From a virus: a stretch of 64,000 bases of DNA. The stretch covers positions 24,042-88,041 of the IMG/VR virus record IMGVR_UViG_3300002460_000003. One strand, written 5' to 3'. Below, piece after piece: positions 1,778 through 14,429 of this stretch. A program made the position numbers and the translations under genes. The notes beneath the pieces are model-generated. The model ran no database searches, was not told the origin of the DNA, and saw only the letters and a list, made by a program, of their open reading frames with translations. Numbering within the stretch: the stretch's first letter is position 1; each line of letters opens with the position of its first letter.

Positions 1778-3462
1778 ATGAGTGATTTTAGTTTCTCACC
1801 AGCGTCTAAGAAACAAGAATGGTTCTTATCAAGTGACGCTAATATTATTGTATATGGTGGTAAATTTGTGCCTCCATTTAAAACTCTCTTAAACGGGGAA
1901 AGCTAAGGGTAGATTACTACCTATGCCAATCCCGTGCCAATGTTTAAAGACAGTGCGTAGAGGCCATCGAAAACACACAGCAATGTGGAAGTGAGTAGAG
2001 TAGGGGTCAAGTGACTCCCGAAACAGAGAGAATTCTTTGAATTAAGAGTTGGTCCGACAACACCTGAAAGGGTGGAAGAAGTTTAACGAACTTCAAAACT
2101 GATAAGGCAATGGGTGGTGGTAAGTCATATTGCGGCTTACTTCGCCATTTACGTTGGGTAGATGATCCACAATATCGTGGTTATGTAGTCCGTAAACAGC
2201 AAACAAGTATTATGGTTGCTGGTGGACTTTTTGACGAAGCTTATGGGTTATATAAAGCTTACGATCCAAATGTAAAACCAAATAAAAAAGCCATGACATT
2301 TACCTTCTCTTCCGGTGCGGTTGTGGCTATGGGTCACTGTGAAACCAATGAGGATGCTGAGAAATGGCGTGGTAGACAAGTATCGGCGTGCATGATCGAC
2401 GAGGCCACACAGCTTCTAGAAGACCATGTTTTGGTTATTCTTTCTCGCCTACGATCTAAAGCAAAAATGGTTCCAAACCTTTTCTTAACTTGCAACCCGA
2501 ACCCGGACAGTTTTGTTCGTCGTTGGATTGACTGGTGGATTATCCCTAAAGGTCAAGAGAATGCAGGAAGACCTGATCCAGAGCGTGATGGTAAGGTAAG
2601 ATGGTTTATTCGTCAAAATAACGAAATGATTTGGGCAGACACAAGGCAAGAGTTACTTGATACTTACGGAAGTCATGTACTCCCCCTCTCCTTACAATTC
2701 ATCTCAGCAACAATCTACGATAACCCACCACTAATTAAATCCAACCCTGGATATCTTGCAAACCTTCAAGGTCTTAAACGTGTAAAACAAGAACGCGACC
2801 TTTACGGAAACTGGGATATTCGTGAAGATGCTTCTGGTTATTGGAAAGCCGAATGGCTTGGTGAACCAGTTAATCCATGTGATTTAGAAATTGTTTCTTA
2901 CTGTAGAGCATGGGATATCGCTGGCTCGATCCCATCCGAATCCCTGCCAAATCCTGACTGGACTGCTGGAGTTTTAATAGGTAAAACAAAGACAGGGTTA
3001 TATGTCATCGAAGATGTTGTGAGATTCAGAGCAAGGTTTGGTGAAGTCTTACAGAGAATTATTGTTACCGCTAAATCTGATCCCGATGGTACTCAAATCA
3101 TACTCCCCCAGGAGCCTGGACAAGCAGGAAAAGCTGCTGGTCAAATGATGATTAAAGAGCTTATTGAGGAAGGGTTCTACGCAAGAATGCGCCCATCTAA
3201 TAAATCTAAAGTCATTCGTTTCCAACCTTTCGCAGCAGCAACAGAGGCTGGGTTAGTTAGATACGTGGCTGGTACTTGGAATGATGAGTATTTCTTTGAG
3301 CTAGAAGCATTCACTGGTGACAGAAAGAATAAGGATGACCAAGTGGACGCATCGTCTGATGCCTTCATAACACTGGCTCAGAAAATGAATATACCAAACT
3401 TCCTCACAGGATTAAAATCAGCCGATTCTATCCTAACAACTACTAACCCATTTGCCCGATAG
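1778..3462 (+). CDS. terL: Terminase large subunit, split by a group I intron: join(1778..1861, 2107..3462)
   Basis: This is the ATP-driven DNA packaging motor and headful or cos nuclease, acting at the portal vertex. Exon 1 (28 codons) ends in VYGG and exon 2 begins with the Ala codon GCA, restoring the Walker A sequence GGAMGGGKS at residues 27-35 of a 479-residue protein. The Walker B is CMIDEA (Asp126, Glu127), followed by the coupling motif LFLTCNPN and the RNase H-like nuclease with acidic residues in RAWDIAGS and DDQVDASSDAF. Without splicing, exon 1 reads 14 codons into the intron and stops at 1904-1906. Initiation at an ATG inside exon 2 (2110) would lose the P-loop beginning. The Shine-Dalgarno before 1778 is weak. 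No small terminase subunit was recognised upstream. Confidence 0.93.
1862..2106 (+). ncRNA. Group I intron (T4 td-like) in terL, without an internal ORF
   Basis: The 245-base insertion interrupts the terL P-loop. The 5' exon end ATGGTGGT pairs with the internal guide GCCTCCAT at 1870-1877, leaving one T-T mismatch and the diagnostic U-G pair at the splice site (T1861). The intron ends in G2106. Core blocks AAACGGGG (near 1890), AATCCCGTGC (near 1928) and GTCAAGTGACTC (near 2006) match the conserved core of the T4 td intron as I remember it. These blocks correspond to P4-P6 and the P7/P8 region. No homing endonuclease is encoded inside. Confidence 0.92.
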
Positions 3463-3470
3463 GAGGCTAT

Positions 3471-4958
3471 ATGGCTGAAACAGCCGTTGAGAGTGTTACT
3501 ACACTTTCCCAAGGCGCAGACTCAACTATACCTCGGCTTAAACTAGGGCAATCAAGTTACAACGGTCTTTGGACTCTCGGTGGTAACATCTTTGAAGAGT
3601 GCAATTCAGAACTACGTTGGCCCCGAGCAATTCATACTTATAAGAAGATGGCTAAAGATGCCACCATTGCTCCTGCTCTCAACTTAGTTGAAATGGCAAT
3701 TGCTCGTGTCCCTTGGAGCATTAAGATTCCAGAGGGTTATGAAGATCAGCTAAAAGATAAAGCTGTATTCCTTGAGCAAGTCATGGGTGATATGGAGGAT
3801 AGTTTTGGATCATTCATCAGACGTGCTGCTACATTCAATCGTTATGGCTTTGCTCCTATTGAAAAGGTGTATCGCAAGCGTTTAAAGGGTAATGGTAGTA
3901 AGTATGACGATGGGTTGATTGGTATTGAAAGTCTCCCTCTAATTGCACAGGATACTGTAGCCAGTTGGGATTGGGAAAAGAAAGGTCGTAAGTTATCAGG
4001 TCTTTGGCAATTCATTGTTGAACCATCAGGTAAGAGTAACGCTACGCTAGTAAATACGAATAGTGAAGAATTCATTCGTCGTAAGAAGTTTATGTTGTTT
4101 CGCAACAACCCTCTGAAAGATAACCCTGAAGGTGAGTCACCTCTTAAAGCCTGTTGGGCTGCTTGGAAGTATAAGACTTCTTTAGAAGAGTTTGAAGCAA
4201 TGGGTGTGTCAAGTGATATGCGAGGACTTAAAGTTCTTTATATCCCGCCACGCTACATGGCAGAGGATGCTAGTCCTGAAGATAAGGCTGTGTATGATTA
4301 TTATAAAAATATCATGCGGAACCTGCATATGAATGAACAGAGTGGTTTGATTCTTCCTCAAGTCCTAGATGACCAAGGTGAACAATACTTTAAGTTTGAT
4401 GTTATCTCTGTTACTGGTCAAAAGGCTCATGATGTAAACAAGATTATTGGTCGTTATAAGAATGAGATTATTTCTTCTCTTATGGCTTCTCAGCTTGTAC
4501 TAGGTCAAGAAGGTGGTGGTTCATTCAGTCTTGCTGAGTCCCTACAGGGTATCTCAGATATGGCTATTGAGTCAAAGTTGATTGAGATTCAAGACCAACT
4601 CAACCATGACCTTATTCCTCAGTTGTTTGCTCTTAATGGTTGGGATACATCAGTCACTCCTCATTTCACCTTTGGTGATCTTAAGACTCCAGACCTCGAT
4701 GTTCTATCTAAGTTTATTCAACGTGTTGGTGCGGCAGGAATGCTGAGTCAAGACCCACGTACAATTAACTGGATTGCTGAACAGGCGAACATGCCAGTTC
4801 CTTTTGATGACACTTCAATGGATATTGATGAAGGGCGTAAGCAACTGACAGGCTTCTCATCTAATGCTGGTGAAGGTATGCAGGAAGGTATGCCATCTGG
4901 AACAGGTAGTGCTACAGGCGGTGGTGATCAATCAACTGGCAACTCGGAGAACACATAA
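3471..4958 (+). CDS. Portal protein
   Basis: 495 residues, the usual size for a portal. It forms the dodecameric ring at the head vertex through which DNA is packaged and to which neck proteins attach. The N-terminal half contains the helical and wing pattern of the DUF935/Mu gp29-like family (for example RWPRAIHTYKKMAKDATIAP). It lies directly after terL. The start ATG follows a strong AGGAGG. The C-terminal 30 residues are Gly/Ser/Thr-rich and probably disordered. It overlaps the protease gene by one base. Confidence 0.88.
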   Translation: MAETAVESVTTLSQGADSTIPRLKLGQSSYNGLWTLGGNIFEECNSELRWPRAIHTYKKMAKDATIAPALNLVEMAIARVPWSIKIPEGYEDQLKDKAVFLEQVMGDMEDSFGSFIRRAATFNRYGFAPIEKVYRKRLKGNGSKYDDGLIGIESLPLIAQDTVASWDWEKKGRKLSGLWQFIVEPSGKSNATLVNTNSEEFIRRKKFMLFRNNPLKDNPEGESPLKACWAAWKYKTSLEEFEAMGVSSDMRGLKVLYIPPRYMAEDASPEDKAVYDYYKNIMRNLHMNEQSGLILPQVLDDQGEQYFKFDVISVTGQKAHDVNKIIGRYKNEIISSLMASQLVLGQEGGGSFSLAESLQGISDMAIESKLIEIQDQLNHDLIPQLFALNGWDTSVTPHFTFGDLKTPDLDVLSKFIQRVGAAGMLSQDPRTINWIAEQANMPVPFDDTSMDIDEGRKQLTGFSSNAGEGMQEGMPSGTGSATGGGDQSTGNSENT

Positions 4959-13445: not shown

Positions 13446-14429
13446 ATGCAAAAATCAGAGTTAGAAGATGATTTTGTCGGGCATGAGTTCGGTGTGGATA
13501 ATCAACTTGTAGTGATAGGTTGGTTTGGTGAGTTAGTGGGTAGTAACAGAAAGTATACAGTCAAATGTAATAAGTGCTCTGGCGATAGTGAACTATATGG
13601 CAATGGTGAATTTCTTATTACTAAGAGTAAAATACTTGACGGTAGGATGCCATGTGGTTGCTCAAAAGCTCCAAAGAGGACTAAAGAGCAATACGAGATT
13701 CTGATAAAAAGAGCTTGCTCGGAAGATAACTATAAGTTCATGGGTTGGGATGGAGAGTTTATTGGTGTAAAGTCAAGGGTGTTAATTGAATGTCCTTGCC
13801 ACAACATCTGTACATCTAAAGTGATTAATGACTTTCTTTCTGGTGGCAGGCGGTGCATAGAAGCTAGGCGAGATAAAGTTAAAAACACTTTACTCCAGTC
13901 TGAAGATGAAGTTATTAAAAGGTTTTTCGACACTGGTGCTTTCCATAAAGAAACAGTTTTTAAAAGAAGCGGTAGAATTGTTCCTTGTGAGAGGTACAGA
14001 GAAGGAGTCAAGCCTTATTGGTTTGTTACCTGTGGTGAATGCAAAGAAAGTTTTGAGACTTTATATAGTACACTTCTTAAAGGTGGAATGTCCTGTGGAT
14101 GCTTTCGACATAAACAAACATTGTCCTACATAAATGGACTGCATGATAAAGAAACTATTGTAGCAATTAAGATAGGCATAACATCCTCCATAATAAATAG
14201 AGAGAAACAACAAGCGCTTGCTTGTATATTTTCAATTAAATCGCTGGGTGTTTGGAAGTTTAGCACTGTCACAGATTGTAAGGCAGCAGAATCTGAGATT
14301 AAAACAACACTTCCTTGTGGGGTTATTAATAAGATTGAAATGAAAGATGGTCATACAGAAACTTTATCCACACTATACATTGATGAAGTTATTAATATTT
14401 ATGAAAAATATGGTGGAATTAAAGTATGA
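13446..14429 (+). CDS. Zinc-binding, GIY-YIG/T5orf172-like protein, probable free-standing homing endonuclease
   Basis: 327 residues of unusual composition for this region. It contains three Cys-rich modules: CNKC...CGC (about 42-75), CPC...C (about 118-137) and CGEC...CGC (about 199-222). Each has a LxxG..CGC-type end and they look like repeated treble-clef DNA-binding units. The C-terminal part has KIGIT...R...Q followed by a W and an AESEIK helix, resembling the T5orf172/MUG113 branch of GIY-YIG nucleases. It is wedged between the tail chaperone and tape measure, normally adjacent genes, so it appears to be a mobile insertion. It overlaps the tape measure start by 4 bases (ATGA). Confidence 0.65.
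   Translation: MQKSELEDDFVGHEFGVDNQLVVIGWFGELVGSNRKYTVKCNKCSGDSELYGNGEFLITKSKILDGRMPCGCSKAPKRTKEQYEILIKRACSEDNYKFMGWDGEFIGVKSRVLIECPCHNICTSKVINDFLSGGRRCIEARRDKVKNTLLQSEDEVIKRFFDTGAFHKETVFKRSGRIVPCERYREGVKPYWFVTCGECKESFETLYSTLLKGGMSCGCFRHKQTLSYINGLHDKETIVAIKIGITSSIINREKQQALACIFSIKSLGVWKFSTVTDCKAAESEIKTTLPCGVINKIEMKDGHTETLSTLYIDEVINIYEKYGGIKV

What the first reader, a model, noticed from the sequence alone, without database searches (positions are those of the whole stretch)
1862..2106. Group I intron placed inside the Walker A motif of the packaging ATPase
Removing 245 bases joins VYGG to AMGGGKS, restoring a perfect P-loop. The guide sequence 1870-1877 pairs with the exon end through a U-G splice pair, and three core blocks match the T4 td intron core from memory. 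The intron has no endonuclease gene. Insertion at the most conserved codons of terL makes splicing essential and could delay terminase production until late infection.
Basis: partly seen in the sequence, partly recalled or inferred. Interest (0 to 1): 0.82.

Follow-up and report, generated by a model that had tools for sequence, protein, structure and literature searches.

The report
Self-splicing intron inside phage terminase P-loop
A 245-base self-splicing RNA intron with no genes of its own sits inside the ATP-binding motif of this phage's DNA-packaging enzyme; it is real and mobile between phages, but introns at this spot are already known, including one in cholera phage ICP1 whose splicing has been shown by experiment.

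Summary
Window 1862-2106 is a complete, ORF-less group I intron, and removing it joins VYGG to AMGGGKS of TerL. Relatives carry close copies at exactly this point, while other relatives have an uninterrupted gene. Across 28 related introns the proposed helices (P1, P3, P4, P5, P6, P7, P8, P9.1) are 98.4% paired, and 33 of 43 pairs show compensatory double changes. Rfam scores the window copy at 40.4 bits, below its cut-off of 50; sister introns score 59-73. The intron's history does not follow that of its gene: a TerL only 57% identical carries an intron 93.5% identical, while TerLs 76-80% identical carry introns only 68-73% identical. It therefore spreads horizontally. Free-standing homing endonuclease genes abut terL in 23 of 28 intron-bearing relatives, but also in 7 of 11 intronless ones, so dependence on them is not shown. 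The window copy has no adjacent endonuclease gene. Related introns lie 3 or 6 bases further along the same motif. One of them, in Vibrio phage ICP1, is experimentally proven to splice. The conserved site is best explained by homing. Nothing found here supports a role in delaying terminase. This is a new member of a known kind.

The parts
1778..1861 (+). terL exon 1: 28 codons ending in VYGG, the first part of Walker A
   Evidence: aligns with the N-terminus of uninterrupted TerLs L010, L019; pooled pN/pS about 0.26 over its last 20 codons
1862..2106 (+). group I intron, 245 nt, no ORF, ends in G
2107..3462 (+). terL exon 2, starting AMGGGKS; ATPase remainder and nuclease domain
1854..1877 (+). 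P1: exon end 1854-1861 paired with guide 1870-1877; U1861-G1870 wobble at the 5' splice site, U-U mismatch at 1858/1873
   Evidence: the splice-site wobble is U-G in 24 of 26 countable rows of 28 introns
1866..1869 (+). P10 guide half (UUGU), pairs with 2107-2110 (GCAA)
   Evidence: 4/4 pairs in 15 of 20 same-site introns; the intron base changes with the third base of the exon codon (GCA/GCU)
1884..1889 (+). P3 5' strand CUCUCU, pairs with 2025-2030 AGAGAG
   Evidence: 5 of 6 pairs with compensatory changes, 100% paired
1893..1935 (+). P4 (1893-1898 with 1930-1935) enclosing P5
   Evidence: 99.4% paired, 5 of 6 pairs with compensatory changes
1936..1956 (+). P6 and P6a
1962..1966 (+). P7 5' strand GGCCA, pairs with 2050-2054 UGGUC; pseudoknotted with P3
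   Evidence: three covarying forms, GGCCA/UGGUC, GACUA/UAGUC and GAUCA/UGAUC (the last in ICP1)
2031..2043 (+). P8 hairpin
   Evidence: all 5 pairs with compensatory changes
2061..2074 (+). P9 hairpin
   Evidence: fold; not in the covariation count
2078..2094 (+). P9.1 hairpin
   Evidence: all 5 pairs with compensatory changes
2110..2112 (+). in-frame ATG 3 nt after the 3' splice site; ORF finders start a truncated 450-aa TerL here

Best explanation
This is a compact, ORF-less, self-splicing group I intron with P7.1/P7.2-type inserts (probably subgroup IA), lying between the second Gly and the Ala codon of the TerL P-loop. The unspliced RNA folds so that the guide binds the end of exon 1 (P1), guanosine attack and exon ligation follow, and P10 aligns exon 2. 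The product encodes intact TerL. At the DNA level the intron is a mobile element that spreads between phage terL genes by double-strand-break repair at this highly conserved sequence. It carries no endonuclease, so homing is probably driven in trans by free-standing homing endonucleases encoded next to terL in most relatives (collaborative homing); the window copy has lost or never acquired that neighbour. Shown here: anatomy, compensatory structure, exact empty sites, horizontal inheritance. Inferred: splicing of this copy, and collaborative homing. Not supported: a regulatory purpose.
For: Spliced ORF and restored P-loop. 43 helix pairs: 99.6% paired in 11 same-site introns and 98.4% in 28 introns, 33 pairs with double changes, 0 of 500 shuffles as high, and sliding the partners by 1-3 columns drops pairing to 38-46%. 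P7 and P10 covary. Rfam RF00028: window 40.4 bits, and 59.0, 71.5 and 72.8 bits for L020, L012 and L024, above the cut-off of 50. Empty alleles at the exact junction in L010, L011, L015, L019, L021. A model built from same-site introns finds the experimentally spliced ICP1 terL intron at 83.6 bits, E about 3e-26 (PMC10448857). Intron versus gene identity. TerL tree: type 1/type 2 introns need 4 changes, presence/absence 5-6 changes, with sisters L047/L069 and near-identical TerLs L018 (intron) and L019 (empty). L018/L019 differences concentrate within 12 nt of the site, 6/24 versus 6/126, p=0.004. HEGs abut terL in 23 of 28 intron-bearing loci.
Against: There are no RNA data for this phage. 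The Rfam score of this copy is below the gathering cut-off. P1 has an internal U-U mismatch. The HEG neighbourhood is not specific to intron carriers (7 of 11 empty loci have one too; Fisher p=0.24) and is absent in the window, so the trans-homing part is a plausible extension, not a demonstration.
Confidence: 0.93

Rival explanations
1. Adaptive timer: the intron is kept because slow or late splicing delays TerL until procapsids are ready.
For: The gene is essential and the unspliced message cannot make an intact P-loop. In type 1 introns, including this one, the in-frame stop lies 15 codons into the intron (1904-1906), so ribosomes leaving exon 1 would run through P1, P3 and P4 before stopping.
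Against: Close relatives have no intron: L010 (TerL about 80% identical) and L019 versus L018, which are near-identical TerLs. Related introns at the other two positions stop translation within a few codons. Presence and type scatter over the TerL tree.
Confidence: 0.05
2. No splicing: the 450-aa ORF from ATG 2110 is the real TerL, and the upstream 42-aa ORF is a separate small gene or debris.
For: An ATG lies 3 nt after the predicted 3' splice site, and ORF finders start there.
Against: That product lacks the first Gly of the P-loop. The only ribosome-binding-like stretch (AAGG) is too close to 2110. Exon 1 is continuous with exon 2 in uninterrupted homologues and looks under purifying selection (pN/pS about 0.26). 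ICP1, with the same layout, was shown to splice (PMC10448857).
Confidence: 0.02
3. A passive, vertically inherited intron that entered terL once and is now only being lost.
For: The window copy has no adjacent endonuclease gene. The HEG association is not intron-specific.
Against: Type 1 and type 2 introns alternate within TerL clades. Intron identity of 93.5% with TerL identity of 57% (L072), versus 68-73% with 76-80%, is not vertical. Vertical inheritance would need repeated convergence.
Confidence: 0.05

Closest known systems
Vibrio phage ICP1 terL intron (PMC10448857; L039)
   Same: ORF-less group I intron inside the terL Walker A motif after a short N-terminal exon; related core (model R1: 83.6 bits); a T5orf172/CapR-type HEG lies directly upstream; splicing shown by RNA-seq, RT-PCR and Sanger sequencing
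   Different: Inserted 3 nt further along the motif (GGA/AGGGKS instead of GG/AMGGGKS); 262 nt; the window has no HEG next to terL; ICP1 TerL is only about 30-33% identical
terL introns of Rheinheimera Barba phages (L042) and Pseudoalteromonas phage PH357 (L040), unannotated in GenBank
   Same: Barba32A is at exactly the same position as the window (VIGG/AAGSGKS), 237 nt, same core; PH357 uses the ICP1 position
   Different: Distant TerL (33-37% identity); no HEG was recognised upstream in Barba32A
Collaborative homing loci (cyanophage psbA with F-CphI, T3/T7-like phages; PMC3984707, PMC10448857)
   Same: ORF-less group I intron in a conserved gene with free-standing HEGs next to it in relatives
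   Different: Cleavage at the insertion site is untested here, and the window lacks the neighbouring HEG
TerL P-loop inteins of mycobacteriophages (PMC5050341)
   Same: Mobile self-splicing elements at the same P-loop of the same enzyme class
   Different: They splice at protein level; the commonest sits between the Lys and Thr of the motif, a few residues downstream
Bastillevirinae terL group I introns (SIOphi, PMC11878797)
   Same: Group I introns in phage terL, self-splicing in vitro
   Different: Mostly larger and HEG-bearing; insertion at Walker A was not stated in the passages read

Membership tests
Group I self-splicing intron | Conserved core helices P3, P4, P6, P7, P8, with P3/P7 pseudoknot | tested here: met
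   98.4% paired, compensatory changes in P3, P4, P7 and P8
Group I self-splicing intron | 5' exon ends in U pairing with G of the guide (P1) | tested here: met
   U-G in all 11 same-site introns and in 24 of 26 countable rows of 28
Group I self-splicing intron | Intron ends in G; P10 with the 3' exon | tested here: met
   All listed introns end in G; P10 4/4 in 15 of 20
Group I self-splicing intron | Curated Rfam RF00028 score above gathering cut-off (50 bits) | tested here: inconclusive
   Window 40.4 bits, E=5.3e-9, not met by this copy; sister introns 59.0, 71.5, 72.8 bits
Group I self-splicing intron | Excision and exon ligation in vitro or in vivo | not testable with these tools
   No RNA data; a relative in ICP1 was shown to splice (PMC10448857)
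Subgroup IA (phage type) | Extra hairpins P7.1/P7.2 between P7 and the P3 3' strand | tested here: inconclusive
   About 60 nt with hairpins lie there, but no subgroup model was run
Collaborative homing system | ORF-less intron | tested here: met
   introns of 220-262 nt
Collaborative homing system | Free-standing HEG adjacent to the intron-bearing gene | tested here: not met
   Not met in the window; met in 23 of 28 intron-bearing loci
Collaborative homing system | The endonuclease cuts intronless DNA at the insertion site | not testable with these tools
   Needs a cleavage assay

The most novel reading that the evidence does not exclude
The TerL P-loop is a shared docking site where related tiny ORF-less introns have been re-seated at three positions 3 nt apart, re-tuning their guides to the local codons, while unrelated free-standing endonuclease genes replace one another just upstream. 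It would be a modular homing system in which intron and endonuclease are interchangeable partners.
Probability: 0.4. Interest if true: 0.55.

Novelty: new member of a known kind. Interest (0 to 1): 0.36.

Why it matters
It corrects the TerL annotation of this phage and, by extension, of records in which terL is called from inside exon 2 and loses the start of the P-loop (Barba phages, PH357). It shows that an ORF-less intron can spread between phages whose TerLs share only about half their residues. It also gives natural intron-plus and intron-minus terL pairs, with and without neighbouring endonucleases, for testing collaborative homing. The curated Rfam threshold misses this sub-type, so such introns are probably under-counted.

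Tried and rejected
Rfam at gathering threshold and at whole-window E-value settings: no intron hit. The Rfam alignment placed P7 wrongly (in AAAGACAG); the covarying P7 is 1962-1966/2050-2054. Single-sequence folding is only mildly unusual (z -1.7), so it was not used as evidence. HEG presence as a predictor of the intron: tested and not significant. HEG inside the intron or beside terL in the window: none found. Other introns of this family in the 88-kb genome: none. T5orf172 family in the genome: none. Literature searches for an earlier report of a Walker A group I intron found only the ICP1 case; the passages read do not name the motif, and the position was derived here from its sequence.

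Full report
The observation. The window is part of an 88,041-base virus record, positions 24,042-88,041. An ATG ORF from 1778 reads MSDFSFSPASKKQEWFLSSDANIIVYGG and then runs into sequence closed in all forward frames. Deleting 1862-2106 joins it in frame to AMGGGKSYCG... and gives a 479-aa large terminase subunit. The downstream part matches both terminase_6 domains. The 245-nt insert changes the frame and contains no gene.

It is a group I intron. Rfam's group I model matches at 40.4 bits (E=5.3e-9, region alone), under the curated cut-off of 50, and is lost in whole-window scans. I therefore tested the structure through relatives. A scan of viral contigs with TerL exon 2, two intron-pattern scans of viral contigs and one of genome contigs gave loci with introns at the same nucleotide position. 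On 11 same-site introns, 43 proposed pairs are 99.6% formed and 19 pairs have compensatory changes. On 28 introns the figures are 98.4% and 33 pairs, against 77.3% in shuffles and 38-46% when partners are slid (that alignment was fitted to a model built from the first set, so it leans towards the structure, whereas one search used a plain MAFFT alignment). P3 appears as CUCUCU/AGAGAG or CCCCUC/GGGGGG, and P7 as GGCCA/UGGUC, GACUA/UAGUC or GAUCA/UGAUC. The guide follows the host codons: P10 is UUGC against GCAA but UAGC against GCUA, fully paired in 15 of 20. Sister introns L012, L020 and L024 do pass the Rfam cut-off.

The junctions are exact. L010, L011, L015, L019 and L021 carry uninterrupted terL with GGAMGGGK(S/T) read straight through, at about 73-83% TerL identity. 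All occupied alleles at this site end exon 1 in GGT, as the U-G splice pair requires. The empty ones have GGA, GGG or GGT.

It is mobile. Intron and gene identities do not track each other: L072 has an intron 93.5% identical with TerL 57%, while L012, L014 and L020 have introns 68-73% identical with TerL 76-80%. On the TerL tree intron presence needs 5-6 changes and intron type 4, with type 1 L047 sister to type 2 L069. L016 shares exon 2 with L017 and L018 but has a very different exon 1, so a recombination boundary sits at or near the intron. L018 and L019 differ more within 12 nt of the site than just beyond it (6/24 versus 6/126, p=0.004), which fits a short co-converted tract but could also be later adaptation of the exon to the guide.

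The neighbourhood. In 23 of 28 intron-bearing loci the gene immediately upstream of terL is a homing endonuclease of one of several unrelated families (HNH_3/AP2, HNH/NUMOD, T5orf172 and others). Seven of 11 empty loci have one too (Fisher p=0.24). The locus is thus a homing-endonuclease hot spot, as reported for terminase genes generally (PMC10448857), and a specific partnership with the intron is inferred, not shown. The window has no such gene beside terL. Its genome has two endonuclease-like genes elsewhere.

What is known. In Vibrio phage ICP1 terL is spliced (RNA-seq, RT-PCR, Sanger) and a T5orf172 HEG lies next to the N-terminal exon; the authors discuss collaborative homing (PMC10448857). 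Its sequence puts the intron inside Walker A, after GGA, 3 nt further along than here, and the model built from same-site introns finds it. PH357 uses the ICP1 position; Barba32A uses the window's position. L024, L025, L031-L033 and L057 use a third position, GGAA/GS. Inteins also occupy the TerL P-loop in mycobacteriophages (PMC5050341). Group I introns and inteins prefer conserved motifs in general (PMC2814812). The placement is therefore expected and is not evidence of regulation.

Verdict. The intron is real and the anatomy is right. It is an unannotated new member of a known kind. The delay hypothesis is unsupported. The most interesting residue is the modular pattern of three adjacent insertion points and exchangeable upstream endonucleases.

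Noticed in passing
L008 4231-4495, L023 4273-5038, L031-L034, L071: A second intron site in terL near residue 439/440; in L023 the insert holds an HNH endonuclease gene (4366-4878).
   Followed up: partly
L005 2878-3170 and 3789-4030: Pseudomonas phage KIL1 terL has an annotated intron near residue 231, and model R1 finds a second group I-like element at the 3' end of the gene.
   Followed up: partly
L002 2962-3256: Acinetobacter phage ME3 DNA polymerase gene is split by an intron of the same lineage (77% identical over 125 nt; 107 bits).
   Followed up: partly
window 13446-14426: Gene among the structural genes with two CapR domains and a phrog_681 endonuclease match, the type of HEG found beside terL in some other phages.
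   Followed up: partly
L042 2534, L040 2522: GenBank terL annotations of Barba32A and PH357 begin inside exon 2 and so miss the start of the P-loop.
   Followed up: partly
L072: A near-identical intron (93.5%) and terL lie in a contig binned as a Bacteroidota MAG; possibly a phage contig or prophage.
   Followed up: no
L016 2738-2998: terL exon 1 comes from a different lineage than intron and exon 2: a mosaic boundary at or near the intron.
   Followed up: partly
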